DNA of 64,000 nt. Source: Megascapheus bottae. Taxonomy: Eukaryota; Chordata; Mammalia; Rodentia; Geomyidae. Positions 2,819 to 63,445 of this stretch are shown here, piece by piece. The translations under genes were made by a program, and so were the position numbers. Each line of letters opens with the position of its first letter. Position 1 is the stretch's first letter. The stretch is taken from positions 434,001 through 498,000 of the forward strand of contig JANJXV010000013.1 of assembly GCA_024803745.1 (NCBI GenBank). The letters run 5' to 3'. The notes beneath the pieces are model-generated. The model ran no database searches, was not told the origin of the DNA, and saw only the letters and a program-made list of their open reading frames with translations.

Positions 2819-2819
2819 T

Positions 2820-3132: not shown

Positions 3133-3149
3133 AACTATTTTTTAATCCC

Positions 3150-3599: not shown

Positions 3600-4558
3600 C
3601 AAAAGACTAAACATAGAGTCCCCGTATGACCCAGCAATCCCACTCTTGGGCATTTACCCAAATGTCCAGAAATAAGAGCACACTATTATTATTATCATTA
3701 TTATTATTATTACTATTATTATTATTTGCCTGTCCTGGGCTTGAGCTCAGGGCCTGAGAACTGTCCTTGGACTTTCTCAAGGCTAGAGCTCTACCACTTA
3801 AGCCTCAACACCACTTTCAGCTTTCTTCTATATATGTAGTACTGAGGAATTGAACTCAGGTCTTTGTACATACTAGGCAAGCACTCTACCACTAGGCCAA
3901 ACTCCTGGCCCCAAGAGCATACTATTATTTACCACAGTTAATATATGGAACCCACCCAGATGCAGCTCAGTAGATAAATGAATCAAAAATGTGGTATTTA
4001 TATACAGTGGAATTCTATGCTGCCATCAGAAAGAATGACATTGCCCCATTCAAAAGGACTCGGGAAAAAATCATATTAAGTGAAGTAAGCTATACCCAAA
4101 GGAACATAGGCTTAATGGTTTCCTCATTTGTAATAATTAGTACACATCTAGGACTCTCCTAGCAGAGGATCACAGTAGCTCAAAAGCTATGCACGTAAGA
4201 TCATATAGGATGAGACTAAGTGAAATGAACTATACAACATGGAAACAAGAAGTTTATCTTTGTGATTGTTGTTCTTAATGTTCTATGTTATTTCTTTTCT
4301 CTTTTTTCCCCTTATGGTTAATCTCATGTGGTTCCTGTATCTGACTGTGTTACATGGTATATTATATATACATTTACTTATGTGAAATAGGAAAGGGAAG
4401 GGGGAAAACAAGATGATTGGGAGGCAGTGGTGGGAGGGAAACGAGGACAAAAACATGAGAAGAGGTATCAATATGTGAGGAATAATGTACCTACTACCTG
4501 ATGAATGCAACTGTAACCCCTCTATATTACCCCAACAATAAAATAAATAAAAATAAAC
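3600..4558 (+). repeat. L1 3' end, split by an inverted SINE
   Basis: Late ORF2 and 3' UTR sequence (GACCCAGCAATCCCACTCTT, then GGAATTCTATGCTGCCATCA) ending at the AATAAAATAAATAAAAATAAA tail. Interrupted at 3691-3912. Confidence 0.8.
3691..3912 (-). repeat. IDL-Geo SINE with (ATT)n tail and 17-bp target duplication
   Basis: The inverted dimer is flanked by AAGAGCACACTATTATT (3674-3690) and AAGAGCATACTATTATT (3913-3929). Its T tail has become an ATT repeat to 3726. Confidence 0.85.
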
Positions 4559-4809
4559 ATTATGTTACATTTGAAGATACTTTTCTGAATTTCTTTCATT
4601 GTAATCAAGTACTAAAAATGTGACTAATAAATTATCTTGTGAGCATTTTCTTAATTTGTTTAAGTGGGACCTGCATCACTTCTCTATCACTTGTACTATC
4701 TGAGTAAATCTTTTTTGGGTGCTTTTATTAGATATGAAGTATATTTTCTTTGTAGAGAATTGCTGTCATTGCTCTTTGAGGTGGAACCACAGGGTCTAAG
4801 CATACTTAA

Positions 4810-4810
<1 letters not shown>

Positions 4811-4852
<42 letters not shown>

Positions 4853-4863
4853 CATCTATCTAT
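4811..4863 (+). repeat. (CTAT)n microsatellite
   Basis: About 13 tetranucleotide units, the last ones interrupted by CCAT. Confidence 0.95.
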
Positions 4864-5064
4864 TGCATCATGGAGTTATAGTTACAGATAAAAGTTTCAA
4901 AAATATGCAATGGAAATAATTTGGAGTAATTAAAAAATGGTATTTTATTTTTCTGTGTTTGCTTAGAAGCATTTTATGTGCTTTTAGTAAACATTCATTT
5001 TAGTATTATTAAAATATTTGATCATATTTGTGATGTTTATATGAGGTAATGCATAAAACTGTAG

Positions 5065-5280
5065 TAAACTGGGTATTGATCACTAACTCCTGCATTCCTA
5101 GCTACCCAGAAGGCTGAGATTTAATTTTTTAAGCTATTGAGGTAGAGAAATTTGTGATCCTCTTACCTCTGATTAACATCAGAAAAACACAGAAGTAGAA
5201 ATGTATGTTTAAGGGTACAGAAAAAAAAATGCAGAGACAGCTTTCAGGCCTTGAATTCAAAGCCCAAGACTAGCCCAAGA
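5065..5280 (+). repeat. Old B1-like/Geo SINE
   Basis: AACTGGGTATTGATCACTAAC, CCTAGCTACCCAGAAGGCTG, ending AAGACTAGCCC. Well diverged. Confidence 0.65.
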
Positions 5281-5299
5281 TGTGTTGAATTAGTAGTAT

Positions 5300-5677
5300 T
5301 GAGGTACCAGCAATACCTCAATTGATGACCCCCTCAAACTAACCCTGATCTTATATGCTTATTAAACAGTCAGCTTTATAAGATGCTTGCTAAACAGTTT
5401 CACAAGGAGGCAGAAAAGGACAAAAATAGGAAAGAACAGCCAGGCAAGCAAACCCCTGTTCCTGTTTGCTCTGGCAGCTATTTGTGGTTTTTGCCTTTAA
5501 AAAGATTGTGTAAACCCTGAACAGGAACTCCTCCCAGCCTCGCTGTGCCGAGTGTCTGCAGATGAGTTCCTTATCTTCCTTGCCTGGCTAGTATCCTGCA
5601 ATAAAGCTTTGCTATTGCATTTTGGATGCCTCAATCTTGGTGATCTTCACTGTGGGACCCCTCCTCTGGGCACAACA
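5300..5677 (+). mobile_element. Solo LTR of an endogenous retrovirus (4-bp TSD)
   Basis: A 378-bp TG..CA unit bounded by GTAT at 5296-5299 and 5678-5681. It has AATAAAGC near 5610 followed by a short U5-like end closing GGGCACAACA. The 4-bp duplication fits class I retroviruses. No internal region remains, so it arose by LTR-LTR recombination. Confidence 0.75.
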
Positions 5678-5681
5678 GTAT

Positions 5682-6499
5682 AATATCTGAAATCCTAAAG
5701 TCAAACTCCAATGATCCTATATTAACAATGCAAACATCTTTAACTCTCATTTCTCATAGAAATCAGAAACAATATTTTCCATTTATATTTAATTGCTCAC
5801 CTGAAAAACCAGAAAAGTCAGTGACTTCATATTCTTTAATATGATTCTGAACTGGTGACATCATATGTTCTTTTCTTCAGGCTCAACGAGTCTTTTTAAA
5901 AACTGCTTTTGTTGTTGCTATTATCTGAGTCATTTACAACAAAATCAAAATGTGCCAGAAGCTGATTTGGGGGAAATAAACACCAGATGATCTAGAATTA
6001 TGTTGGTTTTATGGTCTTCATGCAGGGAAAGCATCCTCCAGACAGTTTACCTGGCTGCAGTCTGGGCTTCTTTGCAGGCCAAGTAAAGACCTGATCAATA
6101 GAAGCTGTGCCCACATTCTGTGTTGACTGGGTCTAAAGGGTGGCCATAGAGATAATGTAGCTCAGTTTTTACTGGTAGGCTTGAGAAATGTTGGAATTCA
6201 TCTTTCCAAAGGCTGAAAATTAGAATCAATTTCTCCACCTACAAAAGTGAAATTGACAAGTGGTGATGCAATAGTAATCTTTAGTCTAAACATTGGAGAG
6301 TTCATGTTGATAAGACAGAAATAAAGAGCCCTGGCACAGATTGTCTGAGCCTAAAGATAATGTAACTAGATCCTCACCACCTGACTCCATGTCATATCCT
6401 CTTAGAGTTGTGTTGTTCCACTGACTAATCTAAGTAGAATAATCTGAGTCGTTTATAATTTCAAAGGGTGGGTCTTGAGTACATTTAAGACCAAAATAA
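5682..6499. other. Non-repeat intergenic DNA
   Basis: No gene, RNA or young repeat recognised. Confidence 0.55.
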
Positions 6500-6740
6500 A
6501 GCTGGGCACATGGCTCATGCCTATAATCCTTGCTACTTAGGACGCTGAGATCTGAGGATAGTGTTCAAAGCCAGCCCAGGCTTGAAAGTCCAAGAGACTC
6601 TTATCTCCAATTAACCACCAGAAAACCAGAAGTGGTGATGTTGCTCAGTGGGTAGGGCAGTAGCCTTGAGCTGAAGAGCTCAGGAACAGTGCCCAGGCCC
6701 AGAGTTCAAGTCCCATGACCAACAAAAAAGAAAAAGACCA
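6500..6740 (+). repeat. B1-like/Geo SINE
   Basis: AAGCTGGGCACATGGCTCATG at the left, GATGTTGCTCAGTGGGTAGG in the right part, tail CAAAAAAGAAAAAG. Confidence 0.87.
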
Positions 6741-7034
6741 AAATACTCTCAGCCAATTACTTGTTTAAGAAAAGGGTGTGTGACTGAACTTTTACTTGAT
6801 TCATTTAAATATCCTCTGTTTTCTTCTGTTGTGTTGTTTAAACCTCACTCAAAATCTTTGACACCAAGAAACCTTTTTAATATGTCAGATTTACTGGTTA
6901 AAATTCTAAAATTTGACCAGAATCTGTTTATAAGGTACACTAATTTGTGGAATTTGCTTTTGTCTCTTTAGTATCTATATCCTGTAATCAATAAATATCA
7001 AATTCAAATTAACAGTTAAAATTTTAATTCTTGG
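6741..7034. other. AT-rich spacer
   Basis: Contains a 63-codon open frame with no recognisable domain; judged non-coding. Confidence 0.5.
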
Positions 7035-7606
7035 GGACTGGGAGCATGGTCTAGTGGTAGAGTGCTTCCCTAGCATGCATGAAGACCCGGGTTCAATTCC
7101 TCGGTACCACATTCACAGAAAAAGCCAGAAGTAGCGCTATGGCTCAAATGATAGAGTGCTAGCCTTGAGAAAACCCAAGGACAGTGCTTAGGCCCTGAGT
7201 CCAAGCTCTAGGACTGGCCCCCAAAAAATCCTGGGATCAGGAGTTTGGCCTAGTACTAGAGTGCTTGCCTAACATGCACAAAGCCCTAGGTTCAATTCCT
7301 CAGTACCAGAAGTGCCAGAAGTGGCACTGTAGTTCAAGCAATAGAGTGCTAGCCTTGAGCAAAAAGAAGTTCAAACACAGAGCCCAGGCCCTGAGTTCAA
7401 GCCTCAGGACCGGCAAAAAAAAAAAAAAATGGGGAGATTCTTTCTCCATAATAACCAGGGGCCAGGAGTGTAGCCAGGTGGTAGAATGCTCACCTCACAT
7501 ACACAAAGCCGGAAGAGGCACTGTTGCTCATGTGCTAGCCTTGAGCAAAAAGTATCCAAAGACAGTGCCCACGCCCTGAGTTCAAGCCACAGGACTGGCA
7601 AAAACA
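7035..7606 (+). repeat. Three tandem IDL-Geo SINEs
   Basis: Head-to-tail copies at about 7035-7227, 7229-7428 and 7455-7606, the third shortened in its left half. Each ends ACTGGC or ACCGGC plus A tail. Open frames on both strands here are SINE reads. Confidence 0.88.
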
Positions 7607-7747
7607 AACAAACCACAAAAAAAATCAGGAAAAAGTGAGTAGAAGTGGTAAAAGTGCAAATAAGTAAAAATGACATAAAGGCTCCAGGATCTGAATTCAA
7701 AATTTGTTAACAGAAGAATGAAAGATTTAGAAATAATCTGTTCTTGA

Positions 7748-7870
7748 AGGCTGGCTTAGAGACGCACACTTATAATCTGCACTAGGCAGGAAATGTAGAA
7801 AACAGAATCAGAACTAGAGCCCTTCCAAGCAGTGAGAATCTATCTGAAAAACAGCAAAAGTAAAATGCAT
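7748..7870 (+). repeat. Degraded B1-like SINE
   Basis: Weak match (AGACGCACACTTATAATCTG, GAGAATCTATCTGAAAAACA). Confidence 0.4.
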
Positions 7871-8400
7871 CAGCAATAGAGGTTAAATTGTAGAAAACCT
7901 GCTTAGAAAATGCACCTGTATTTAGAAAGAAGAAAAAAGAAAGAGGAAGTAATTTGACTTATTTCAATACTAGTTAAACATGAGTGATATATTGTTTTAC
8001 ATCAGGAATTCATTCCTTAGAATTGTTTTTTTTTCTCAATGTATCGTATCTTGTGTCCACACTAAACTAGATGGAACAATTTATTCTACAGGACTCCTTG
8101 GTTCAATGATAACACTTTAACAGAAGATATAAAAGCTCAAAACATAGCATAGGGCATATGTTCTACAAGAAGCATTTTGTTTGTAATTACAGGAGGTACA
8201 TTAAAAATAAAATATACTATGGTAGTTATATAAACCATTATTATTATATAAACCAAATATTATGACAATGATATACTCTTGTAAGGTAACTCGGTTGATG
8301 AGGAAGAAAGAAGCCACATTTTGAGAGGCTGAACTGGGTGTCTTTATCAGAGAGCCAGGATCTACTGATGGACTCTGGTCTCAAAGACTTTGCAGCCTCT
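7871..8400. other. No recognised feature
   Basis: AT-rich non-coding sequence. Confidence 0.55.
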
Positions 8401-12511: not shown

Positions 12512-12517
12512 TTTATT
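12512..12517 (-). promoter_or_regulatory. Candidate poly(A) signal of the TRIM gene
   Basis: AATAAA on the minus strand, 120 bp past the TRIM stop codon. It lies in non-repeat sequence, so it could give a short 3' UTR. AAUAAA is common in AT-rich DNA, so this is a candidate only. Confidence 0.5.
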
Positions 12518-12636: not shown

Positions 12637-13169
12637 TTAGGCGCTAGCCTTCCCTTTCTTCTTGTCCTTGTGCTTAAGAACTGGGGCAAAAACAAAGAAA
12701 GGCCTGAGAGGGGAGGAGAAGGAACAGGCGAGGAAACTACAAATTGGGGAATTGTTGGCCACATCCACGAAGTTTATCCTGCCAATCTCATAATCCAGGA
12801 ACACTCCCACAGGGCCTGTGGGCTTCTTTATATACTGAGGTAAAAATGGGGAAGAGATGAACATTTGGCCCTGCTTCTTCTCTGTCACACAGAAAAGTAG
12901 AAAAATACCATCAGAGTCAAGTTGCATATCCTTTCTCATTTTCCAAGAATCATCACAAAATCCAACTGCCCAGTTCACATAGTTTTTCACTTCTACCTCC
13001 CAGTAACATCGGCCTAAAGCACAAGACAGATCTCCCCATGTGAGACAGCCCTCAGATCCTGACTGAGTTTGGGGAACGTCAGGATGGTAGGGGCCGAAGA
13101 TCCGACTTCTTAGTTCTTCAAGCAAAGGCACCGGCCAACTATGTATTTTAGATTCCCAGGAAACACACA
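12637..13169 (-). CDS. TRIM exon 6, PRY-SPRY (B30.2) and stop
   Basis: The acceptor ATTCCTGCAG| ends at 13170. The exon encodes 176 whole codons plus stop, starting VCVSWESK after the split Val codon. B30.2 landmarks in order are the PRY part, YWEVEVKNYVNWAVGF, a long LDSDGIFLLFC strand, PVGVFLDYE and PLRPFF. The open frame runs on to 13311, but the 142 bp before the acceptor are intron. After PFF the protein carries an extra tail containing KHKDKKKGKASA, more basic than the short ends remembered for relatives and a possible nuclear signal. Confidence 0.92.
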
Positions 13170-14979
13170 CTGCAGGAATGATAAGATAGTTGAAATAATT
13201 TTGGAATTTTCTGATGAACTTTAGCTTTCCACAGTTGCCTAGTATAATATGTTTCCACTGGAAAACTGAGTCAGGACAAGAAAAGAACTCTAGAAGTTTA
13301 CTAATATCCAAGGGCTACTGTTACTAAAACAAACAGATGATCACTGATATAGAGAGTTCATAGCCAGTGGCTCACACCCGTAATCCTAACTTCTCAGGAA
13401 GCTGAGATCTGAGGATTAAGGTTCAAAGCCATCCTGGGCACAAAAGAACCTGAGATTCTTATCTCCAATTAACTACTAGAAAACTGGAAGTGGCACTGTG
13501 GCTCAAGGGATAGTGCAGTAGCCGTGAGCTGAATAGCTCAGGCACAGTAGCCAGGCCCAGAGTTCAAGCCCCACAATCAACCAAAAAAAGAAAGAAAAAT
13601 AGATATTTCATAAATTCTCCTGAAACTGGAAAACAGCATGGATATTGTTGACCTGCTTGATTTATGAAAAAGCATGTGGATTGTGGAATTTTTAGTAATT
13701 CAAAATAATTAACAAAAGAAGCTCAGAAAAATCTGTTCTATTTCCTTTGAGAGCATATGATAATTTCACCATAAAAACACATAAATGAGAGTTCAACTAT
13801 ATGATTTTCACAGAGATTAAATGTGTCCTGAGTTAATACTATCACTATGATATAAGAAATGCAGAAGCTGTTAACCATGGTTATGGAAGGGCTAGGATGT
13901 GAGTTACATGTGCGAATATAATTCATGTATTTAGCTTTTGATGGCTTGTAGCATCACCTCACATCATTTTTTTATTTTAAATATATTTTTTATTGTAATT
14001 AATAAAAGGGTTACATGATAATTGCCAGATAGAAGGTACATTAATTCACATACATTGATACCCTTTCACATGTCTTGATACCCATTACCCTTCCTCTACC
14101 CCCCCACATCATTTTTTTATAATGTCAAATTTGTTTATAAAAGCTGTCCATTAGGAAGCAGTGCTGAGCAGCAAACAGTCCACTAAGAAAATTACTAGAG
14201 AAGAATTGGGCACCCCTGAAAGTAGCTGCCTGTTACCTTGGAATTGTTTGAATATACGATTAAATCCAGTGATAGGCCATGCACCAATCTGGGGATTCAT
14301 AGGCAGAGGTATGTGCAGCGCCAGCGCAGACTCACTTCTGTAAAGGAGACTCAGTCATATTTGTGTGAATTTAAATTTTATTGCAAAGGTGATATACAGA
14401 GAACAGTGTTATCCCTTGTCCTCATTTTCTCCCACTTTCCCGTCTTGGCAGATGACATGAGCCCGTAAAGAACCCTATAGACTGTTCTGCAAAGCTATTC
14501 AAGCTGATCAGAAACTGTCTCAAAACAGCATGGTATAAAAGTGACCCACAAAAATCAAAAGCTTAGCCAGGTGTTGGCAGCTCACACCTGTAATCCTAGC
14601 TACTCAGGAAGCTGAGGTCTCAGGATTGAGGTTCAAAGCCAGACAGTGTACAAAAGTCTATGAGACTCTTCAATTAACCACTAGAAAACAAAAAGTGGTG
14701 CTGTGGCTCAAGTGGTAGAGTGCTAGCCTTGAGATGAAGAGCTCAGGGACAGCGCCCAGGCCCAGAGTTCAAGCCACACAAGAACAACAACAAAAAGCTT
14801 ATCTGTATGACAACAATGAGAAAAGCAATGTTGGAATCAGCAATGCAACTCCTTTTGTATTAGCCTCAAAAAAAAAAAGAGGAAGGAAAGGAAAGAAAGA
14901 GATAAAGAGAAAAGGAAGGAAGATAGTTAGAGAGAGAGAGACAGAGAGAGAGAGACAGAGAGAGAGAGACAGAGACAGA

Positions 14980-15045
<66 letters not shown>

Positions 15046-18000
15046 GAATGTAGAAATTAACTTAACCAAAGATGCAAAGGAGGTCCATAAAGAAAACCTT
15101 AAAAACTTGACAAAATGCCAGCTGGCTCACACCTGTAATCTTAGCTACTCAGGAGGCTGACATCTGAAGATTGCAGTTCAAAGCCATCCTGGGCACAAAA
15201 GAGCCTGAGACTCATATCTCCAATTAACCTCTAGAAAATGGGAAGTGGGGCTTGGCTCAAGGGTAGGGCAGTAGTCAAGCTGAAGAGCTCAGGGACAATG
15301 ACCAGGCCCAGGGGGTAGGGTGGTAGCCTTGAGCCAAAGAGCTCAGGGACAACACTCAGGCCAAGTTCAAGCCCCATGATCTACAAAAAACCACCTAACA
15401 AAGTAAATTAAAGCAGATTTAAGGAAGTACATAAACCTCCCATGCTCCTAGGAGAATTTAACATCCTGAAAATGACAATACTTCCCAAGCTACCTACAAA
15501 ATCAGTGCAATACCCATCAAAATCCCAACAACATTTTTTAATGATATAGAAGAAGCAATCCAAAAATTCACCCAGAATGATAGAAAACACCAAATAGCAA
15601 AAACAGTCCTTAGCAGGAAGAACAGTTACACAGCCATACTTATAAAAATAGCTTAGTACTGGTTTATGAACAGGACTAATGGAGGACCAGCGGAATAAAC
15701 TCAAAGGCCATCTAACCTTTGATAAAGGAGCCAAAAACATAAGATGGAAGAAAGACTCAACTGCACTTTTTAAAGCCCAACTCTTCATTACAGTAAACTC
15801 TCTCATGATGGTTCAAATGTTTTCTTTAGGAAATCTCCACACATTTTGAGTGTGCACCAAATGTGCATTTGCTTCATTAAAAATCTGATTTTTTGCTGGG
15901 TGTGGTGGCTCACACCTGTAATCCTAGCTACCCTGGAAGGTGATATCTGAGGATCAAGATTCAAAGCCATCCTGGGCACAAAAGAACCTGAGACTCTTAT
16001 CTCCAATTAACCTCTAGAAAATGGAAAGTGGGGCTTGGCTCAAGGGTAGGGCAGTAGTCTTGAGCTGAAGAGCTTAGGGACAGCACCCAGGCCAAGTTCA
16101 AGCTCCACGACCCATAAAAAAAAAAGAAAGAAAAGAAAAAGAATTTGGTTTTCAACCCCCTACCTAACCACTTTTACCTTAAATTTCAATTTCAATCATC
16201 AAAAAAAGTGTTTTTCTTAGTCTCACAACTGAGGAAATAAGTTCAAACCAGTAGGAAATTTCAGAAGAGCTTTTTGAATATTCCCCCATTCTAGTCCCAT
16301 TGAAATGTTTAGTTTCTTTCATTCATTCATTCTTTCTTCTTTTTTGGCGAGGGGGGGAGGTGCGGTCAGGGGGCTTGAACTCTGGGCCTGGGCCCTGTCC
16401 CTGAGCTCTTCAGCTCAAGGCATCACCCTACACATTAAGCCTCAGTCCTACTTCCCATTTTCTAGCGGTTAATTGGAGATAAGAGTCTCACAGACTTTAG
16501 TGCCTGGGCTGGCTTTGAACTGCAATCTTCAGACCTCCGCCTTCTGAGTAGCTAGGATTAAAGGCATGAGCCACCAAGCCCAGCTGAAATGTTTAGTTTC
16601 CAGGACTCTGTTTCCCTAACTATGGCAGGTAGCCTTTCCATTTGGGGTTGGAAGTCTATATGCTGCAAACCTAAGCTTCAAATCCTGAGTAGTTTTGCTT
16701 TCATTCTGGTACACTATTGAATGATTACAAGGACCTAATATTTCCCACAAAAGTAATGGAAAAAGGTGACTTGAAATATAATTTTCTTCAGAGTTTGAAC
16801 TTTTATATCAGAAAGATAATAGCCTTGTCCAGAGGAAATATAAAAACTCTTTCTTTTTCCTTTTTGAGGAAGGCAGGTCAAACTATATCAAATTCGCTAT
16901 TTTAAATAATCAGGTTAACTTAAGATATGAGCAAGCCAATATCAACCAGAACTTGTGAGGATGAGGCAAATACTTGTAGAGTTAAAGATCAGTCAGTATA
17001 GATGGAGAGCTATCAAAGATAAAAATACTGATAGGTAAGTACTGTTTTATAGCTTGGGCAGAGATGTGCTTTAGAATTGCCTTATACATCACTGTAATAA
17101 TTTTGAGTTTTTGAAAGTAAGGATCAAATTACCTTTCAAACACGTTTCCAAAATTCTGTAAAGAGAAAAGAGAATATTCATATTAATCACAAGTTTAAGA
17201 TTGCCAGCATGTTATTTTTTTATTTCTTTTAACAATTGCAACATAAGAGTGTGCCAATACTTATTTTCTCAGCTGAGTACTGTTGATTCATGTACTTACT
17301 GCTTAGGATAATGAATCATGACAATCACTTGAGCCCAGGCATTTGAGAAGACCTTGCTTAATACAGAGAGAAGCAATTCTAAAAGAACTTTCTCAAGTTG
17401 TGTTTGCTCCAAGATAAGGAGAATCTGACTTTTTCACTTATAAAGACAGGAAATCATTTTGCAAATAAACAATGGAAGACATTAAGTCTCAAAAATCACA
17501 CTTCAACTCCCCTTCCTAATTCCTCACCTCCAGCAGCTGCAGGTCTGGCTTATGACACAGTTCTTTCATTTCAACAAACATTTCTCTCAGGGAAGTCTCT
17601 ACCTTTAGCATGCTGTCTTCATTTTCTGAGAGTTTTTGAAAAGTAGCTAGCTTTTCACACTCGAGTTTCTGTAAATAACTTTCCTTTTTCTTGTACCACT
17701 GCTCACTCAGCTTCCAGTACTCATCGCTGATCAATTTACTCCGTGTGCTCATATAATCCTAAAGACACAAGGGAAAATCTGACACATGAGTCAAGAATGT
17801 TTTCATCCATATCTTCTTAATTTCAGTGCTGTCCTGTGATGTTAATCGAAAACTAAATTCATTAAACTTTAAAAAATTAAGTGCTCCTTGTTTCTTTCTT
17901 TGCTTGTATTGTTACATTTCAATTTACTTATTGCACTGTACTTCATTCAAAACACTGCTTTTGACTAGTTTCCCCACAATACCAACATTTAAAAAAAATC

Positions 18001-19359
18001 AATCAAGCATTAAATATTCATTATTTTCAGTAGCATATTGTAATATGTACATGGAAATAGCCTGCATACAGGCATGTTCTTCTTTTTTTCTGGAAATAAC
18101 AAGTCTTATAGTGATACAGAAGCCTTCTGGTCGGTTGTGGGACTTGAACTCTGGGCCTGGGCACTCCCTGAGCTCTTCAACTGAAGGCTATTGCCCTAAC
18201 CCTTGACAGTGCCACTTCCAGTTTTCTAGTGATTGGAGTCTCATATTTAGTGCCCAGGCTGGCTTTGAACTGCAATCCTCAGATCTCATCCTCCTGAAGA
18301 TTACAGGCTATTTCATGATATTCTTCAGAGCATCTACACTTTGAACTTTTTTTTTAATTGTTGGGGTAATATTTAAAGGACTTACAAGTCCTTTAAGTAC
18401 ATTTGCCAGGTAGTAGGTGCATTACTTCATACATTGATACCTCTTCTCATGTTTTTGTCCCCATTTCCCTCCCTCCGCCCCCTCCCAATCATCTTTTTCC
18501 CCCTTCCCTTTCCTATTTCAAATAAACAAGTATATATACAATATACTAGGTTACAAAGTCAGATAAATACACCTTGAACTTTCACTTCAAATGATCTGTT
18601 ATCTTTTGTTTTGCATTTCCTTCAAAAATATAGGATTCTCTTTATTTTCTGTTTTGATTTTATTATTCAATTTTGTCTCCAATCTAGAGAATGTGGAGAA
18701 TTCTTTTATCTCTGCCGACACTAGTGTCCATTTGGTATTTGTGAAGTAACGTATGATATCTATATCCTCCAAAATATATCTGTTTTTTCAGCACTGAATT
18801 TTTTGCCATTTCTAGGCCTTGAACTGAGGGCCTGAGCACTGTCGATGGACTTTCTCAAAGCTGGACTTTCTCAAAGCTAGAGCTCTACCACTTGAGCCAC
18901 AGCATCACTTCTCCCTTTAAGGAATCGAACCTGGGTCTTTGTACATACTAGGCAAGCACTCTACCACTAAGCCAAACCCCCGGCCCCAGCACTGAATATT
19001 TTTAATCTTATTTTATTGTCAGGGTTATGTTCAGAGGGGTTATAGTCACATATGTAAAGTAGTGAGTACATTTCTTGTCAAATATTGTTACCTTCTCCCA
19101 TGTTGTTCTCCCACTTTCCCTCCAACCCCCCTCTCATGTTGTAAAGTTCATTTACAACATATTGTCTTGTGAGTATTGTTGTTACATTGGTTCACTCTTT
19201 GTCCTTTGTCTCACAATTTTGCTGTTCCCCTTCCCTTCCCTAATTCAAATAAATATATATATAATCACCAGGTACCAAAATCGAATACAGTGACAATAGG
19301 AGATAAACCATAGGTGGAAAGAAAGAAGGAAGGAAAGAAGGAAGGAAGGAGAAAGAAAG

Positions 19360-19405
<46 letters not shown>

Positions 19406-20550
19406 CGCAGAGAGAGAGAGAGGGAAAGGGAGAGGGAGGGAGGGAGGGAGGGAGGGAGGAAAGAATTTCACATAGTACATTAAAAACAACCACAAAGAAA
19501 CACCTCTTGTTTAACTTATGAAAAATTACTTAGAAATTTCATTGCCTTTTTGTGAAAGCCTGTATTTATCTACAAAGTGTGATCCAGGTTTAGTTGAGGA
19601 ATTGGTCAGGTCTGTGGTAATTGATGGTATTAGACAAGCAATGGAAATAGTCATATGGATATTTGAATAACAAAGACCTCTGTTTCTTATTCTACAAACT
19701 GTGTCCCTTTTCATTGTGCTGCCTACTAAAACCACCATAGTCTAAGTTTTATAGTAGGAGCACCAAGTTTCCAAGTTTGTGTTCAGGGGATAACAAGTTT
19801 TTTACTTACCAGCCATGTTTGAATTCTGTTTTTTTGTTGGACTAGATTTCTCTCGTTTTCTTTTTTCTTTTCCCATAACAACTTCATTTGCATTAGAAGC
19901 TTCTTCTGTCAAAGAAAGTTAAATGTGAGCGAAAGAGAAGTTGACCTGGAAATGTTTAGATCTCAATGCTGGATATGACAGCAATGTTAGATAAATGAGC
20001 ATTCATGTCATAGAAGTCACTTACCTTTACCAGAAAGATGGACTTCCAGAGACTTAATGAACATAAAATTAAAATGTTATTTATTTGAAAGATGTTACAC
20101 AGTAGTGGAAGATGATCGTCTTACGTTGTGCCTTCAGACCATTTTTTAAAAGTAAATTCTGTCTTGGTATTAAGTGGTCTAGGTATTTTTCAAGTAGAAG
20201 GTGTGAACCAGTGCTCCTAAAAGACTTCACTACATTGTACATATGCAATCAAGATTGCAGAATCCCCTGCTACCGAAACTTGATCAATTTGGCCTTCATC
20301 CTTTACTTATCAGATTCTCTCCATAATCATCATCATTACCATTCCCACAAAATTGGAGAATCGTAAAGGCAAAAATATAAGGTCTTGCTGGGTGCGGTGG
20401 CTCACCCCTGTAATCCTAGCTACTCAGGAGGCTGAGATCTGGTGGTCAAGGTTCAAAGCGAGCCCAAGCAATAAAGCTTTTAAGACTCATCTCCAATTAA
20501 CCACCAGAAAATCAGAAATGGAGCTGAGCCTCATGACATATATACATATA

Positions 20551-20600
<50 letters not shown>

Positions 20601-21425
20601 CTATGGATTGGGAATGCTCTTTGATCATTTATTCTAGTGTTTTCCACACAGTGTTCTGTGGACTAAGTAATGATTTTTTTTACTCTTTTTTTTTTTTACC
20701 TGTCCTGGGACATGAACTCAGGGCCTGAGCACTGTCCTGGGGCTTTCCTCAAGGCTAATGCTCTACCACTTGAGCCACAGCACCACTTCTGGCATTTTCT
20801 ATGCATGTGGTACTAAGGAATCAAGCCCCAGTCTTTGTGCTTGCTAGGCTAGCACTTTACCAATAGGCCAAACTCCCAGCCCCAGTATTTACTCATTTTC
20901 ATGACCTCAGTGAATCATCCACTGTCACCTTCTCTCTCAGCCATTGCTTACCCTGTATCTCTCTGCAGTCCAGTCAACAGAGCAGTCACCATGAGCTCTA
21001 TGGTCCTCGGTCCTGCAGCACTTAGAGCAGATTTGGTCTTTGACAACCTCACAGTAGAAATTCTTAGCTTGCATATGTATGTCACACCTTTCTTCAGAGT
21101 CAGGTAGAAACATGGATAAGGTCCTTCGGACCATAAATACCCGTGTCCACAAAACCAAATCAGTTTTCAAGTCTGTTTGATTTGATGGCATTTTGCACTC
21201 AGGACAGAGGAAAGGATATTGGGCCTTCTCCCAACAGATGTAGAGACAGGGCCTGCAAAATCTGTGTTCACAGTCTAGAGTGACTGGGTCCATAAAATAG
21301 TTTAGGCAAAGTGAACAATTGAATATTCTGGAGAAGACACTCAAACCTGTATCTCTGCCAAAAGAAAAGTAAATATTATTGCCAGTTTGGACTTCATAAA
21401 AAAATATTTCCACACCCCACAACAT
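12637..21425 (-). CDS. TRIM43/49/64/77-group E3 ubiquitin ligase gene, six coding exons
   Basis: A complete TRIM-type gene (RING, B-box 2, coiled coil, PRY-SPRY). Spliced coding parts, 5' to 3' on the minus strand: 21425-20952, 19905-19810, 17758-17528, 17155-17133, 14337-14237, 13169-12637. Each internal boundary has AG and GT, the phases 0/0/0/2/1 agree across all five introns, and the product is about 485 residues from the upstream ATG, or about 461 if counted from just after the AGA codon at the expected start (the family is roughly 450). TRIM RING domains are E3 ubiquitin ligases acting in the cytosol, with the SPRY domain choosing the target. By remembered comparison the linker (NPQ..AW.ITG) and SPRY (MQLDSDGIFLL, LDYE, ICSFL, PLRPF) look closest to TRIM77, but TRIM43 is a serious alternative, so no symbol is given. 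The first exon lacks a Met at the usual position. This group expands in lineage-specific clusters; mouse Trim43 copies are early-embryo genes. Expression here is unknown. Confidence 0.9.
13355..13597 (+). repeat. B1-like/Geo SINE in TRIM intron 5
   Basis: CATAGCCAGTGGCTCACACC to CAACCAAAAAAAGAAAG. Confidence 0.87.
13976..14104 (-). mobile_element. Short L1 3' end in TRIM intron 5, 16-bp TSD
   Basis: Same L1 tail family as at 10075. Target duplication CACATCATTTTTTTAT at 13960-13975 and 14105-14120. It lies 132 bp beyond the donor of exon 5 and leaves the splice site intact. On the gene's sense strand the L1 runs forward. Confidence 0.88.
14237..14337 (-). CDS. TRIM exon 5 (101 bp), linker before SPRY
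   Basis: Acceptor CTTTACAG| precedes 14337 and donor CCAAG|GTAAC follows 14237. After completing the Arg codon it reads SESALALHIPLPMNP then QIGAWPITGFNRIFKQFQ, clearly the SE-VLLHMPQPVNPEL..PITG linker of this TRIM group. The 101-bp length takes phase 2 to phase 1, exactly what the SPRY exon needs. It was located by its motif and splice sites, not by an open frame. Confidence 0.9.
14566..14797 (+). repeat. B1-like/Geo SINE with TSD
   Basis: AAAAGCTTA flanks both ends (near 14558 and 14794). Lies in TRIM intron 4. Confidence 0.87.
14881..15041 (+). repeat. (GA)n microsatellite
   Basis: GGAA/GAAA-rich start turning into pure GA of about 65 bp, with CAGA interruptions. On the TRIM sense strand it is a long CT tract. 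Confidence 0.95.
15115..15389 (+). repeat. B1-like/Geo SINE with repeated Geo segment
   Basis: The right part is present twice (GGGTAGGGCAGTAG and GGGTAGGGTGGTAG), a local duplication. Confidence 0.85.
15893..16131 (+). repeat. B1-like/Geo SINE
   Basis: GCTGGGTGTGGTGGCTCACA to AAAAAAAAAAGAAAG. Confidence 0.9.
16335..16588 (-). repeat. B1-like/Geo SINE
   Basis: GGTCAGGGGGCTTGAACTCT to GAGCCACCAAGCCCAGCTG; sense with respect to the TRIM gene. Confidence 0.9.
17133..17155 (-). CDS. TRIM exon 4, 23-bp microexon
   Basis: Acceptor CTTTACAG| precedes 17155 and donor AAAG|GTAAT follows 17133, leaving exactly 23 bp, the length of the TRIM microexon at this place. It reads NFGNVFE plus two bases that complete an Arg codon with the next exon. 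This corresponds to the DLGD/NI..R segment joining the coiled coil to the linker. It shifts the phase from 0 to 2, so skipping it would break the frame. Confidence 0.88.
17528..17758 (-). CDS. TRIM exon 3 (231 bp), main coiled coil
   Basis: Acceptor TTTAG| precedes 17758 and donor GAG|GTGAGG follows 17528. The 231-bp length is the family standard for this exon. It encodes 77 residues of heptad-like, Glu/Lys/Leu-rich helix used for antiparallel dimerisation in TRIM proteins. It ends with a KELCHKPDLQLLE segment, closely matching the MCHKPDVELLQ-type motif of the TRIM43/49/64/77 group. A Met occurs at 17752 but lies inside the exon and is not a start. Confidence 0.92.
18128..18312 (-). repeat. 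B1-like/Geo SINE, truncated
   Basis: GGTTGTGGGACTTGAACTCT to ATCCTCCTGAAGATTACAGG. Confidence 0.85.
18343..18572 (-). repeat. L1 3' end
   Basis: GTAGGTGCATTACTTCATAC and CCCTTTCCTATTTCAAATAA are the reverse of the L1 3' UTR seen elsewhere in the window. Confidence 0.78.
18802..18985 (-). repeat. IDL-Geo SINE with TSD
   Basis: CAGCACTGAAT occurs just before the element (near 18790) and just after it (near 18986). Confidence 0.85.
18998..19275 (-). repeat. L1 3' end
   Basis: Reverse of the L1 tail with CTTCCCTAATTCAAATAAAT; a second subfamily variant with a CATGTTGTTCTCCC segment. Confidence 0.7.
19318..19461 (+). repeat. GAAA/GA/GGGA purine repeat
   Basis: Three motif zones: GAAGGAAA, then pure GA, then GGGAGGGA. 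It is a mirror-type polypurine run in TRIM intron 2, a candidate for triplex DNA. Confidence 0.93.
19810..19905 (-). CDS. TRIM exon 2 (96 bp), start of coiled coil
   Basis: This exon is too short for an ORF scan but is fixed by acceptor TTTGACAG| before 19905 and donor CTG|GTAAGT after 19810. The length of exactly 96 bp is that of the second coding exon in this TRIM family. It reads in phase 0 as 32 residues beginning KKLLMQMKLLWEKKKENE, a charged helix continuing from the B-box. It holds no stop and ends in phase 0. Confidence 0.9.
20386..20535 (+). repeat. B1-like part of composite SINE
   Basis: GCTGGGTGCGGTGGCTCACC through AACCACCAGAAAATC; the Geo half is replaced by a TG repeat. Confidence 0.85.
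20553..20600 (+). repeat. (TG)n microsatellite
   Basis: About 23 TG units following TATACATATATG. Confidence 0.95.
20686..20884 (-). repeat. IDL-Geo SINE
   Basis: Lies 68 bp downstream of the TRIM exon 1 donor, in intron 1. Confidence 0.9.
20952..21425 (-). CDS. TRIM exon 1: RING finger and B-box 2
   Basis: Counting from the ATG at 21425-21423, the C3HC4 RING has C37, C40, C52, H54, C57, C60, C74, C77, all present. The B-box 2 pattern C-x2-H-x7-C-x7-C-x2-C-x5-H-x2-H is complete (C114, H117, C125, C133, C136, H142, H145). Both zinc modules should therefore fold. The donor is AGG|GTAAGC with the exon ending at 20952 in phase 0. The start is doubtful: residues before D25 do not look like a TRIM N-terminus, AGA (21354-21356) sits where the family Met is expected, and a good pyrimidine-rich acceptor (TTTTCTTTTGGCAG) ends at 21355. 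The exon may thus begin at 21354 with translation starting in an unseen upstream exon, or the gene may have lost its start. Confidence 0.88.
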
Positions 21426-22957: not shown

Positions 22958-23565
22958 TATATTTATACAAAACATTCATACATAAGATTGTTTTTCTTGC
23001 ATACCTATAATGCCAGGACTGAGAAATCTTTAGCCAGCAGGGTCATGACTTCAAGGCCACAGTGTTCCACAGAAAAAACTATCCAAACACCCAAAGAATA
23101 ATAATGGTATTACTTTCTTTAAAAGATTGATCAAAAAAAAAGATTGATCAATGTAACTGTAACTCCCCTGCTTGTCATCTTTATAATAGACATAAAGATA
23201 AATAAAAATAATTATGTTCACCGTTGACTTTTAAATGATTTGTCACTAAAGTGAGGCTCTTAAGAATCTATGGTAGATAGGTATACATTAGAAGATATTC
23301 CAAATCATAAAGCACTATGGCTCATTTACCTTCCCCTGGACATAGTTTCAGTATGTTCCTCACAATGTCATTTTCTTAGTACAATGTACAGGGGATTTAA
23401 GGTAAAGAGAATATGCTGGGAAAGAAATTCAAAAACTTAGTTATCATTCTGGATAATGTCATTGAGAAAAAGTTTTAATCAGCTAGTGATGAGAATCAAT
23501 AATTCTAAAATAAACTAACTTTACAGCAAAAAACTATAACTACACAATCACTAAAGGAAAGCCTA
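22958..23565. other. No recognised feature
   Basis: AT-rich. A short direct repeat AAAGATTGATCA occurs twice near 23123-23150. Confidence 0.5.
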
Positions 23566-25814: not shown

Positions 25815-26475
25815 ACTTTCTTAACTGGACCCTGAGGGGCACTGAGACACTGCCTTCCAACAGCGGGTGGGGGTGTACGGGAGTCTGCCAGCCAGCATCT
25901 GACTGGCCCAAACCTCAGAGGCGTGCCCGCCTGCTGGGAGCCCCCAGCAAGACAACATCAAGGGGCCCCCCACAGAAAGACTCTCAGCCACAGCAGCTGA
26001 AACACAGCAGGGAACTGAAGGACAGACCAACAGGGGCCAAGAGCTTGACCCCTGAGAGCCAGAAAGGGGAGGCCCTTCCCTCAGAGCCCACATCCTCACT
26101 GGGCTTCACCCCTAGGAAGAGGGAGGAATCCAGTTGGTTTAGCTGAGAGCTCCTAGAAACTCCTAAACCCCAGGCCCTCGGCTGGGCCCTGCCTCTGGGA
26201 ACAGGGTAGGCAAACTAGCCATCTCTGGGCTAGCACAACTTCATCCTATGGCCCACTGAGGGGCCACTGGTTAGGCTGAGAGCCAGCTGTGCAGTGGCAC
26301 ACAGCCTCTGGGAACAGGCTGAACACCTGTAAAAGCTGCAAACTGACCTAGTCAGCAGTGGAACTAATTTGGCTGAGAATCACACATATACACAGATTCC
26401 CAAAACCACCAAGCCCAAACCAAGTAAAGACCCCCACCTACCAACCACAGAACAAACCTACAACAACAGTCCTCC
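25815..26475 (+). promoter_or_regulatory. L1 5' UTR / promoter region
   Basis: GC-rich relative to surroundings, directly upstream of ORF1, and with no SINE inside. L1 5' UTRs carry the internal promoter. No tandem monomers as in mouse L1 are visible. Confidence 0.65.
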
Positions 26476-27359
26476 ATGCCTCGAAAAGTGCAACGACAAA
26501 TTATGACGTATATAAATAATCAAAGTCCCACACAAAGCCCAAAAGGAAACAAGAGTAAAGGAATGAGAGAGATGTCACCATCCCAAGAAATGACACCTGA
26601 AGAGACACGAAACATGACTCTATTCAAGGAGATGATTGTGGACATGACTAAAGAGATTAAAACAGAATTCCAAAAACAATTCCGGGAACATAACCAGGAA
26701 ATTACCAAGGAGCTCCTCAAATTCAAAAGAGAAGTGGAAGAAAAGATTAATATCCTCTCAGAAGACATGATCAGCTCAGTATCCACAATTCAAGCAAAAA
26801 TGGATGCATTAAGCAACAGATTGACTGAAATGGAGAATAAGAATATCCGGAATGGAAGATAGAATGCAAGAGCTGGAACAGAGAATCATCAGTCCGGAAA
26901 AATCAGTCAAAATTCACCAAAGAGAACTCCAGGACCTGTCAGACACAGCCAAGAAATCTAATCTTCATATAATAGGGATAGATGAAGGGGCAGAGTTTAT
27001 CCATAAAGGAATGCAACCCTTATTCACAAAAATCATAGCAGAGAACTTCCCCAATCTTAAAAGGAAATACTCACATTGTTAAAGGTTTCAGAACTCCAAG
27101 CAGGCAAGATCCTAGAAAGTACTTGTCTAGACACATCATAGTAAAAACACTAGACCCGAATACCAAGGAGCTGACCTTAAAAGCTGCAGAAACAAAGAAA
27201 AAGCTATACTACACTGGAAAAAAATTTAGAATAACTACAGACCTCTCCATGCAAACCCTAAATGCAAGAAAAGCTTGGAAAAAATATCATTCATGCCCTG
27301 AAGACCAACAACTGCCAACCCAGACTGATATATCAAGCGAATCTAGCCTTTACATTTGA
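26476..27359 (+). pseudogene. L1 ORF1 (RNA-binding protein), broken
   Basis: Three frames make up one ORF1: 26476-26862 (basic N-terminus and coiled coil, many Glu/Lys/Ile), 26852-27082 (coiled-coil end and RRM start, SNLHIIGIDEG, compare the usual NLRIIGIPEG) and 27123-27359 (C-terminal domain with KAWKKYHSC). At least two frameshifts separate them. The protein would normally trimerise and coat L1 RNA. Confidence 0.85.
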
Positions 27360-27545
27360 GAAACAAGATTCCATTTCAAAGAGAAGCTATATGAATATAT
27401 GCACACTTAACCAGCATTACAAAAAATATTAAATAACCAAGAACAAATTGCAGAACAGCAAGAACCCCCATCAAGAAGCAATCATCTATAAATCACTAAA
27501 CACAAAAGGGGAAAAAAGAAAGAAACTTAGAAGTAAAAATCAATA

Positions 27546-30536
27546 ATGACACAGTACACTGACCACTTCTCCATAATTTCCCTAAATGTGAATGGGCTGA
27601 ACAATCCAATCAAAAAACACAGAACAGCAGACTGGATTATGAAACAAGACTCATCCATATGTTGCCTCCAAGAGGCCCACCTCACTGCCAAAAAGAGAAA
27701 CAAACAACAAGTGAAAGGATGGAAATGAATTTTCCACTCTAATGCACCATGCAAAAAAGCAGGAGTAGCAATCTTAATCTCCGACTAAATTAACTTCTCA
27801 ATAAAATCTGTACATAAAGATAAAGATGGCCACTACATATTAGTAAAGGGTACAATCAATACCCACAATATTATAATTATAGACATTTACTCCCCCAACA
27901 CAGGAGCACCCAAATTTGTCAAGCAAACTCTCTTAGAATTATAGAACAAGATAGACTCAAACACAACCATAGTGGGAGACTTCAATACACCACTCTCACC
28001 AAATGACAGGTCAACTCAACAAAAGTTAAGCAAAGACACCATTGACTTAAATGACACCATAGCCCAGCTGGGCTTAACAGATATACACAGAGTCTTCCAT
28101 CCCATGGTGAAACTTTATACATTTTTCTCAGGAGCACATGGAACACACTCTAAAATAGATCATAGAATAGTTCATACAGAAAACTTAAGCAGATACAAGA
28201 GGAATGATATAATCCCATGCATTCTATCTGATCATAATTGGAGTCAGACTAGTTCCGAACAATGCAGTAAAAGTCAAAAAACATTCAAACATTTGGAAGC
28301 TGAACAACACACTTCTTAATAACTCCTGGGTTACAGATCAGATCAAAGAAGAAATTCAAAACTTTCTTGAATGTAATGACAATCAAGAAACATCACAAAG
28401 GAACTTATGGGACACAGCAAAGGCAGTTCAAAGGGGCAAATTTATCACACTAGGAGTGCATGTTAAAAAGACAGAAGAAGAGCATATAAATAACCTAAAA
28501 AAGAAATTGAAGCACCTAGAGGAGCAAGAAAAAGTTAATTCTAATACAACTAGAAGGACAGAAATAACAAAAATAAAATTAAAAATATCAGATTAAAATA
28601 AGATCCACTATACACAAAATTAATAAATAAAAAAATTGGTTCTTTGAAATAGTCAACAAAAGTGACAGACCTCTGGCAAGATTAATCAAAAAAAGGAGAG
28701 GGGAGACTCAAATAAACAAGATTAGAAACTCCACAGAAACAATCAACAACCGATATCCAAGAAATTCAGTCCATTATGAATAAGTACTACCAGGGCCTAT
28801 ATTCAAAGAAACAAGAAAATCTAGTAGAAATGGATGACTCCTTAAATAAATGTAGGCTACCCGCATTGAAAAATGACGAGGTAAGCAAATTGAACAAATC
28901 AATTTCATACAATGAAATTGCAGAAGCAATCAGGAAATGCCAACCAAAAAGAGCCCAGGTACAGATGATTTCACTGCGGAATTCTACAAGACGTTTAAAG
29001 ATGAAGTAATACCTCTACTCTTGAAACTCTTCCGAGAAATAGAAGCAGAAGGAGCAATACCAAACTCATTTTATGAAGCTAATATTACATTCATCCCCAA
29101 ACCAGGGAAAGACCCAACAAAAAAAGAAAAGTATGGACCTATCTCTCTAATGAACACAGATGCAAAACTCCTCAATAAAATACTAGCCAATAGAATCCAG
29201 AAACAAATTTTAAAAATTATACACTATGATCAAGTAGGCTTCATTCCACAGATGCAAGGCTGGTTTAACATTCGCAAATCAATCAATGTAATACAGCACA
29301 TCAATAGGGCTAAGGATAAGAATCATATAATTTCTCTGGACGTGGAGAAGGCATTTGACAAAATACAATATCCAATCATGTTGAAAGCACTAGAAAAAAT
29401 AGGAATAAGAGGTATATTCCTTAAAATAATTAAAGCTATATATGACAAACCTACAGCCAGTATTATACTAAATGGTGAAAGACTGGAACCATTTACCTTA
29501 AAATCAGGAACTAGACAGGGATGCCCACTCTCTCCATTTCTCTTCAATATACTGCTGGAACTCTTAGCCAGAGCAATAAGGCAAGAAAAGGAGATCAAAG
29601 GGATCCACATAGGGAAAGAAGAAATTAAACTATCTCTATTCACAAATGACATAACTTGAGTGACCCAATAAGCTCCACTCCCAAACTCCTAGAATTAATA
29701 AACCACTTTAGCAAAGTGGCAGGATACAAAATTAACCTTCAAAAGTCAGTAGCCTTCTTGTACACCAACAATACACAAACAGAAGGCCAAATCAAGAAAA
29801 TGATCCCATTCGCAATAGCCCCCAAAAGAATAAAATGCTTAGGAATTAACTTAACCAAAGATATAAAGGAATTATTTAATGAAAACTATAAAAGCCTAAC
29901 AAAAGAAATTAAAGAGGACACCAGGATATGGGAAGATATCCCATGCTCATGGGTAGGGAGAACCAACATAGTGAAAATGGCCATATTGCCAAAATTGGTA
30001 TACAAATTCAATTCAATCTCCATCAAAATCTCAAAGATATTCTTTACTGAAATAATCCAAAAGTTCATATGGAACAAAAAAAGACCTAGAATAGCCAAAA
30101 CAATTCTAGGCAAAAAGAGCGATGCAGGTGGTATTACAATATCAGACTTCAAACTCTACTATAGAGCCATAATAACAAAAACAGCATGGTACTGGCACAA
30201 AATAGACCAGAAGATCAATGGAACAGAATAGAAGATCCAGAAATAGAACCACATACCTATAGTCAACTTGCATTTGACAAAGGAGCCAAAGATATACAGT
30301 GGAACAAACACAGTCTATTCAATTATGGGTGCTGGCAAAACTGGTCAGCCACATGCAGAAAACTAAAAATTGACCCTAGCCTTTTGCCATGCACAAGCAT
30401 TAACTCAAAGACCTCAATATCAGACCAGAAACTGCCACATGATAGAGTAGGAGAGACACTGGAGCTCATAGACACAGGCAAAAGATTCCTGAGACAAGTC
30501 AAGACCAAAGTTACAAAAGCCACATGGTATCCTTAG
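27546..30536 (+). pseudogene. L1 ORF2 (endonuclease and reverse transcriptase), broken
   Basis: The endonuclease part keeps ISLNVNGLNNP and LQEAHL (27546-27728), then a stop. GDFN-type GDFNTPL and the SDH motif are in 27972-28319. The reverse transcriptase is in 28776-29659, with KAFDKI and [11 protein letters not shown]. The catalytic FADD motif reads FTND and is followed by a stop, so the enzyme is dead. The frame resumes at 29656-30231 and 30186-30536. The Cys-rich C-terminus is missing through deletion. Confidence 0.88.
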
Positions 30537-61811: not shown

Positions 61812-62765
61812 GAACTTAAAGAGAGACTTCTCTGGGCCGGGAGTTTGGACTAGTGGTAGAGTGCTTGCCTAGCATGCACGAATACCTGGGTTCAATTCCT
61901 TGGTACCACATACATAGAAATAAGCTGGAAGTGGTGCTGTGGCTCAAGTGGTAGAACACTAGCCTTGAGGAAACTCCAAGGACAGTAGTCAGGCCCTGAG
62001 TTCAAGTCCCAGGACTGGCAAAAAAAAAAAGAGAGAGAGAGAGAGACTTCTCTGAAGAGGAAATAAGAATGGCTTATAGACACATGAGGAAATGCTCAAC
62101 ATCTCTGGCCATGAAATAAATGCAAATCAAAACAACTTTGGGATTCCACCTCGCTCCAGTGAGAATGGCCATTATCAATAAATCTAATAACAACAGATGC
62201 TTGAAGGGAACACGAGTACATTGCTGGTGGGAGTGTAAACTTCTTCAACCACTCTGGAAAGCAATATGGTAATTCCTCAAAGACTAAACATAGAGCTGCC
62301 CTCTGACCCAGCAATCCCACTTGTTGGCATTTCCCCAATTGTCCAGAAACAAGAACATACTAAATTTACTAACACTATGATGTACATTGCATAATTATTC
62401 ACCATAGCTAAGATAAGGAACCAACCCAGATGCCCCTCAGTAGATGATTGAATCAAGAAGATGTGGTACTTATACACAATGGAATTCTATGCTGCCATCA
62501 GAAGGAATGACATCGCCCCATTTGCAAAGAAATGGAAAGACTTGGAAAAAATCATATTAAGTGAAGTAAGCCAGACCCAAAGGAACATAGGCTCAATGGT
62601 TTCCCTCATTTATAATAATTAGCACACATTCAGGCCTCTCCTAGCAGAGGATCACAATAGCTGTGTACATAACATCATATACAATGAGACTAAATGATCT
62701 CTAGGATATGGAAACATCTCAGAAAAATGTATAAGGAACTGATAAAAACATACCAATATCCAGAC
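61812..62765 (+). repeat. L1 3' fragment split by a SINE
   Basis: CTTAAAGAGAGACTTCTCTG continues at 62041 with GAAGAGGAAATAAGAATGGC. Late ORF2 with LLVGV-type frame fragments, then 3' UTR, truncated before the tail. Confidence 0.82.
61835..62040 (+). repeat. IDL-Geo SINE with TSD
   Basis: GAGAGACTTCTCTG at 61821-61834 and 62041-62054. Confidence 0.93.
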
Positions 62766-63445
62766 ATGGAACTCCTCAAGGTAATAATGTGGCAATATTT
62801 AGATGATCAGAAACTCACACTTTCACTATCCTATTAGGCACCAAAAAGATTTTGCTATTGTTCTTATGTTTTTTTAATGAAGAGTGGGATACTTTTTTTT
62901 TTTCCTCCCAGAGTAGTCAACTGGTATAGGAGTATGAAAGATATCTCAGGGAATGTTTTTCTCCCACTTGCCCTCCCCTCCCCCCACCTTCTTGGTGGGT
63001 ATGTTTTTACAGTCAGGGTGTCTGAAGAGCTGACCTTTGTTCCTCTTTGTGTGAAAGGCCTTTATTGAATTGCACCAATGCATGTTTCTTGTAGTTAACA
63101 AACCCCTAGACAGACTGGTGGTTTTCAGGTTTTCACCAAGGCACATCTCCCCTCATCCTTCAATCCTTTTGGACTAGAATTAAATAACATATTAGATTCG
63201 GCCATTATGTTATTTTTTTTCTGGATACTTTTAGAGTAGGATCTAAATTTGTAAAGTCCCAGTGAGTGAGTTTGGGTAGTGATTTGCTTAATTTTTTTCC
63301 AACACTGCTTAAGAGAATCAACTACTTCGTGAAAAGTCTAAACTTTTCTTTGTTTCTTTGCAGGATTTGAAATGTGCACTAGCAAAGCAAGTTTGTTTTC
63401 AGTGCAATGTGCCAAGTTGCTTCTGAAAAATTGAAGAAAATAGAA
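62766..63445. other. No recognised feature
   Basis: Non-coding, with T-rich and C-rich runs near 62890-62990. Confidence 0.5.

What the first reader, a model, noticed from the sequence alone, without database searches (positions are those of the whole stretch)
12637..21425. Complete, open TRIM gene hidden among repeats
Six exons with family-standard lengths (96, 231, 23 bp), canonical splice sites, continuous phase and no internal stop give a RING/B-box/coiled-coil/SPRY protein. TRIM43/49/64/77 genes expand and decay quickly between mammals, so an open copy in a geomyoid rodent may be lineage-specific.
Basis: partly seen in the sequence, partly recalled or inferred. Interest (0 to 1): 0.75.

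Follow-up and report, generated by a model that had tools for sequence, protein, structure and literature searches.

The report
Old placental TRIM gene in rodent
A rodent, probably a relative of kangaroo rats, carries an almost fully readable copy of an old placental-mammal ubiquitin-ligase gene that is a sister of TRIM77; its usual start codon is gone, so it looks like an old gene with an unresolved beginning, not a newly born one.

Summary
The exons are real. On the minus strand of 12637-21425 six exons join in one frame with GT-AG introns, with lengths 96, 231 and 23 bp as claimed, and encode RING, B-box, coiled coil and SPRY. The closest protein found is an annotated Dipodomys merriami protein, 72% identical over 94%.

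Two parts of the reading need correction. First, it is not a young copy. In a 77-row tree it sits, with D. merriami, in a 17-row placental clade (elephant, colugo, tree shrew, bat, odd- and even-toed ungulates, carnivores) that is the sister of true TRIM77; placing it inside TRIM43 or TRIM77 proper is rejected. Second, "complete" is overstated: the family start codon aligns with ACA, and the ATG at 21425 lies upstream of a likely splice acceptor, so the first ~24 residues of the model are probably intronic.

Amino-acid changes tend to avoid conserved columns, which argues for past selection. dN/dS and expression could not be tested. Two decayed TRIM43-type exon pieces lie in the same window. 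Verdict: new member of a known kind, modest interest.

The parts
20952..21425 (-). Exon 1: RING (residues 37-77) and B-box (residues 114-145). Likely true exon start is 21354; 21355-21425 is probably intron
21348..21350 (-). ACA codon at the place of the family start codon
   Evidence: alignment: M of Diceros, hippopotamus, dog, whale, sloth in this column
21355..21370 (-). Acceptor-like site ACTTTTCTTTTGGCAG in front of exon 1
   Evidence: read directly
19810..19905 (-). Exon 2, 96 bp, start of coiled coil
17528..17758 (-). Exon 3, 231 bp, coiled coil
17133..17155 (-). Exon 4, 23 bp
14237..14337 (-). Exon 5, 101 bp, linker
12637..13169 (-). Exon 6, SPRY domain, TAA stop at 12639-12637
   Evidence: model, fold matches
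12512..12517 (-). AATAAA, 119 nt after the stop
   Evidence: such a match is not rare in A+T-rich DNA
23364..23371 (-). Candidate 8-nt upstream coding exon ATGACATT before GTGAGG; speculative
   Evidence: one of 9 candidates; outside window-internal repeats
5948..6201 (-). Decayed RING exon of TRIM43 type, with stops and a frame break
62712..62780 (+). Tail of a TRIM43-type coiled-coil exon, 78% identical over 23 residues to D. spectabilis TRIM43-like

Best explanation
The gene is the orthologue, in a probably geomyoid rodent, of an old placental TRIM gene that is the sister lineage of TRIM77 and has no name of its own. It was under selection for much of the time since it split from the D. merriami copy. 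From family knowledge the product would be a RING-type E3 ubiquitin ligase that dimerises through its coiled coil and binds its target with the SPRY face; by analogy with TRIM43 and its kin the best guess for its place is germline, early embryo or infected cells. The old start codon is lost, and translation most likely begins in an upstream exon spliced to the acceptor at 21355. Shown: exons, frame, domains, placement, fewer changes at conserved columns. Inferred: transcription, the new start, ligase activity, target.
For: Continuous six-exon frame with GT-AG introns. Closest protein D. merriami, 72% over 94%; tree 100/100 with it and 100/100 for the 17-row clade. 112 of 446 columns differ from D. 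merriami and lie at fast columns (z 4.9; none of 20,000 shuffles as high), and the window departs at 0 of 36 columns conserved in at least 95% of other rows. Where D. merriami keeps the majority residue, the window departs at 1 of 61 columns of at least 90% conservation against 29 of 157 others, p 0.0007. A neutral simulation to 12.5% amino-acid change left a stop-free frame in 2.7% of 300 runs. RING ligands all present (by eye). The codon differences between window and D. merriami in the alignment are in-frame.
Against: No start codon at the family place. No expression data. At the 70% conservation threshold the avoidance is not significant (12 of 123 against 18 of 95, p 0.073). The stem leading to the two rodents is long (0.53 changes per column), which fits fast adaptive change but also relaxed constraint. 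The SPRY model is only moderate (pLDDT 72). Neighbouring TRIM pieces are dead. D. merriami is the only close relative found, so other geomyoids may lack the gene.
Confidence: 0.6

Rival explanations
1. A recently dead gene: it was functional until lately, then lost its start codon, and has not yet gathered stops or frameshifts.
For: Family ATG replaced by ACA; dead TRIM exon pieces on both sides; no protein of the window itself was listed among the hits, so it may be unannotated.
Against: D. merriami also lacks Met at that column, yet has an annotated protein with a start four residues upstream, so the loss of the old ATG may predate the split and have been compensated; 1 of 61 window departures at columns of at least 90% conservation.
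Confidence: 0.25
2. A working gene that starts at the ATG at 21425, with about 24 extra N-terminal residues.
For: The frame is open from 21425 into the RING, and the base three before the ATG is A.
Against: The added stretch runs through a polypyrimidine tract and acceptor that ends at 21355, and has no counterpart in D. merriami or most relatives aligned.
Confidence: 0.1
3. A young, lineage-specific duplicate of TRIM43, 49, 64 or 77.
For: The group does expand and decay quickly in primates (PMC3228819, passages and section 6 part 1), and the window holds other TRIM pieces.
Against: Falls in an old placental clade; AU tests reject TRIM43, TRIM77 proper and geomyoid TRIM43 as its home. TRIM64, 49 and 51 were not tested by AU but lie outside on starred branches.
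Confidence: 0.03

Closest known systems
Dipodomys merriami protein annotated 'TRIM43-like' (P0001)
   Same: 72% identity over 94%, same domains, shared C-terminal extension ending in ASA, sister in the tree at 100/100
   Different: Annotated start lies four residues before the old Met; 14 extra residues at the exon 2/3 junction in its model; one residue missing in each relative to the other
Placental TRIM77-sister clade (horse, rhinoceros, elephant, dog, pig and others; named TRIM77, TRIM77-like or TRIM43-like)
   Same: Same clade at 100/100, 45-50% identity for the rows cited
   Different: Members have the family Met where the window has ACA; the rodent pair has a long stem branch, 0.53
TRIM77 proper (tarsier, gibbon, hare, colugo and others)
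   Same: Same architecture; sister clade at 99/97
   Different: About 38-42% identity in the rows cited; membership rejected, p 0.0023
TRIM43 (human and siamang; D. spectabilis P0207; Perognathus P0215)
   Same: Same plan. Human TRIM43 ubiquitinates pericentrin and restricts herpesviruses (review PMC11599090, passages)
   Different: A separate clade in which two geomyoids have their own TRIM43; membership rejected, p 0.0034

Membership tests
TRIM/RBCC with SPRY | RING C3HC4 | tested here: met
   Pfam zf-C3HC4_4 3.6e-9, above its cut-off
TRIM/RBCC with SPRY | B-box 2 | tested here: inconclusive
   No Pfam hit at E up to 0.1; the eight ligands C-x2-H-x7-C-x7-C-x2-C-x5-H-x2-H are present by eye (pattern recalled). 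None of the 25 best relatives lists the Pfam B-box PF00643 either
TRIM/RBCC with SPRY | Coiled coil | tested here: inconclusive
   Exons 2-3 align with the family and the TRIM72 chain match spans residues 33-297; no coiled-coil predictor was run
TRIM/RBCC with SPRY | SPRY domain | tested here: met
   Pfam SPRY 3e-13; fold matches to pyrin and TRIM21, E 3e-8 to 1e-7
TRIM/RBCC with SPRY | Ubiquitin ligase activity | not testable with these tools
   Needs a bench assay
TRIM77-sister placental clade | Monophyly with its members | tested here: met
   100/100, 17 rows of 77; 19 rows of 51 at 100/100
TRIM77 proper | Inside the TRIM77 clade | tested here: not met
   AU p 0.0023
TRIM43 | Inside the TRIM43 clade | tested here: not met
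   AU p 0.0034
Intact protein-coding gene | Open frame and splice sites from RING to stop | tested here: met
Intact protein-coding gene | Start codon at the family position | tested here: not met
   ACA in the column of the family Met; a start elsewhere is possible
Intact protein-coding gene | Expression and dN/dS below 1 | not testable with these tools
   No RNA data and no DNA of a relative were available

The most novel reading that the evidence does not exclude
Among rodents, only the geomyoids kept a TRIM77-sister ligase, and there it changed fast and moved its start codon to a small upstream coding exon. One candidate in the window is the 8-nt ATGACATT before GTGAGG at 23371-23364, which would give MTL ahead of the first exon, where D. 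merriami has MDI. It would be a fast-evolving antiviral or germline factor with a new N-terminus directly in front of its RING.
Probability: 0.2. Interest if true: 0.5.

Novelty: new member of a known kind. Interest (0 to 1): 0.3.

Why it matters
The names TRIM43-like and TRIM77-like in public records cover more than one old placental gene. Separating them matters for anyone who infers function from a name, because human TRIM43 is an antiviral factor and this gene is not its counterpart. The case is also a small, testable example of a gene that seems to have outlived the loss of its start codon.

Tried and rejected
Young duplicate of TRIM43 or TRIM77: rejected by AU tests. A SPRY exon that begins after TAACAG near 13315: read by eye it runs into a stop; the acceptor before 13169 gives a gapless fit to relatives at the junction. 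DUX4-type motif (written from recall): 0 matches in the window, 0.6 expected by chance. D. merriami's 14 extra residues: no credible match in the window. Upstream coding exon: 9 candidates between 21360 and 45000, none confirmed. Papers: none holds both TRIM43 and Dipodomys; two hold TRIM77-like, TRIM43-like or the full TRIM77 name, seen in the listing only; 23 hold TRIM77, 20 listed, seen in the listing. PMC5335264, passages only, did not settle the host's SINE type. Other long frames: of 9 scanned, one has a reverse transcriptase domain; the rest have none above Pfam's cut-off. dN/dS: not possible, because only proteins of relatives were at hand. A bacterial promoter/terminator scan is irrelevant to a mammal.

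Full report
What is there. The gene lies on the minus strand. Six exons, 20952-21425, 19810-19905, 17528-17758, 17133-17155, 14237-14337 and 12637-13169, join in one frame; the five introns are GT-AG, the lengths 96, 231 and 23 bp are as claimed, and the joined frame has 485 codons and a TAA stop. Pfam reports RING (3.6e-9) and SPRY (3e-13) but no B-box. The eight B-box ligands are in place by eye, and none of the 25 best relatives lists the Pfam B-box either. Among solved structures the best sequence matches are TRIM72 (residues 33-297), pyrin, butyrophilins and TRIM21; 123 sequences matched and 60 were shown. An AlphaFold2 model of the SPRY exon alone is moderate (mean pLDDT 72, pTM 0.67, below 50 at residues 1-13 and 28-38) and matches pyrin and TRIM21 chains at E 3e-8 to 1e-7 with TM about 0.5.

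What it is. Of 105 proteins found, the nearest is a Dipodomys merriami protein named TRIM43-like, 72% identical over 94%. Next come horse, rhinoceros, hippopotamus, elephant and dog proteins named TRIM43-like, TRIM77-like or TRIM77, at 47-50%. Human TRIM64 is at 36% and gibbon TRIM77 at 38%. Two more searches followed: 123 hits, 120 listed; 541 hits, 120 listed. From these 247 protein ids I chose 76 by hand, plus the window, for a tree; nine rows of the first, 51-row tree were dropped to save room. WINDOW and D. merriami join at 100/100 inside a 17-row clade at 100/100 with elephant, colugo, tree shrew, horseshoe bat, horse, rhinoceros, carnivores and even-toed ungulates. Its sister, at 99/97, is true TRIM77 (10 rows). 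TRIM43 is elsewhere, and two geomyoids have a TRIM43 there (D. spectabilis, Perognathus). Forcing WINDOW and D. merriami into TRIM43, into TRIM77 proper, or next to the geomyoid TRIM43 rows is rejected (p 0.0034, 0.0023, 0.0003; the groups were named after the tree was seen). Colugo has rows in both sister clades, as have cats and toothed whales, so the two split early in placental history. No primate, lagomorph or other rodent row of the tree fell in the window's clade (3 lagomorph and 11 other rodent rows were in it). The protein search works by shared words, sees annotated proteins only, and lists were capped, so absence elsewhere is not proven.

The start. In one search the family start Met aligns with residue T26, codon ACA at 21350-21348. 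D. merriami has Leu in that column and an annotated start four residues further upstream. In the window the only upstream in-frame ATG is at 21425, and between it and the RING lies ACTTTTCTTTTGGCAG, a good acceptor ending at 21355. The horse and pig models also run a few residues upstream of the family Met (QRN-M in horse), which would fit reading through an acceptor at the same place; that is inference. A scan gave nine donors with an in-frame ATG in the right phase. One, ATGACATT before GTGAGG at 23371-23364, has the 8-nt length that MDI would need in D. merriami if its third codon is completed by the first base of the next exon, and lies outside window-internal repeats. It is a lead only.

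Is it under selection? dN/dS could not be computed. Instead I asked whether amino-acid differences avoid conserved columns. Of 461 window columns from D25 on, 446 were usable. In 112 of these the window and D. merriami differ, and these lie at fast columns (mean rate 1.29 against 0.97; z 4.9; none of 20,000 shuffles as high). Changes seen in the window alone also lie at fast columns (30 columns, z 3.3); those in D. merriami alone less clearly (22 columns, z 1.6, p 0.06). Of 36 columns conserved in at least 95% of other rows, the window departs in 0 and D. merriami in 1; of 72 at 90%, 10 and 11, of which 9 are shared; of 112 at 80%, 22 and 22, of which 17 are shared. Where D. merriami keeps the majority residue, window departures are 1 of 61 against 29 of 157 at the 90% threshold (p 0.0007), 5 of 90 against 25 of 128 at 80% (p 0.003) and 12 of 123 against 18 of 95 at 70% (p 0.073, not significant). 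The mirror test for D. merriami gives 2 of 62 against 20 of 148 (p 0.026), 5 of 90 against 17 of 120 (p 0.067) and 5 of 116 against 17 of 94 (p 0.001). A neutral simulation to 12.5% amino-acid change needed 88 substitutions, gave 3.35 stops on average, and left no stop in 2.7% of 300 runs; about nine indels would come with it at an assumed 0.1 per substitution. End branches of the two are alike (0.16 and 0.14). This speaks for constraint during much of the time since the split and cannot exclude a recent death.

Surroundings. None of the six exons overlaps a repeat found within the window; 41% of intron sequence does. A decayed RING exon of TRIM43 type lies at 5948-6201, minus strand, and the tail of a TRIM43-type coiled-coil exon at 62712-62780, plus strand. 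The window thus looks like part of a decayed TRIM cluster in which this gene alone is open. An AATAAA lies 119 nt after the stop.

Mechanism. From family knowledge (recalled), RING plus B-box plus antiparallel coiled coil plus SPRY makes a dimeric ubiquitin ligase that binds its target by the SPRY face. Human TRIM43 does this to pericentrin, is induced through DUX4 and restricts herpesviruses (review PMC11599090, passages). In humans, 11 of 20 full-length genes of the group gave processed testis transcripts by RT-PCR, and 14 of 20 have expression evidence when GenBank cDNA reads are added (PMC3228819, section 6 part 1).

Limits. The host is not identified: geomyoid rests on the nearest protein. 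The host's assembly could not be searched. No RNA data and no DNA of a relative were at hand. The BMC Evol Biol paper PMC2533329 was seen in passages only; it says that clustered TRIM43/48/49/64 loci have paralogues but not orthologues in some mammals.

Noticed in passing
window 5948-6201, minus strand: Decayed first exon (RING) of a TRIM43-type gene, with in-frame stops and a frame break; no further exons of it were found in 1-8000.
   Followed up: partly
window 62712-62780, plus strand: Tail of a TRIM43-type coiled-coil exon followed by GTAATA; the sequence just before it looks like LINE-1 (by recall). Further exons may lie beyond the window's right end.
   Followed up: partly
window 26428-30536, plus strand: LINE-1-like reading frames, with a reverse transcriptase domain at 28916-29656 (Pfam RVT_1, 3e-30).
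   Followed up: no
window 31806-31876, plus strand: ARAGORN calls a tRNA-Ala (agc); it may be a tRNA-derived repeat and was not checked.
   Followed up: no
proteins P0002-P0019 and P0241: Public records give one old placental clade three names (TRIM77, TRIM77-like, TRIM43-like), although the tree separates it from both TRIM77 and TRIM43.
   Followed up: partly
P0001 (D. merriami): Its gene model has 14 extra residues exactly at the exon 2/3 junction, either an extra small exon or a prediction error.
   Followed up: partly
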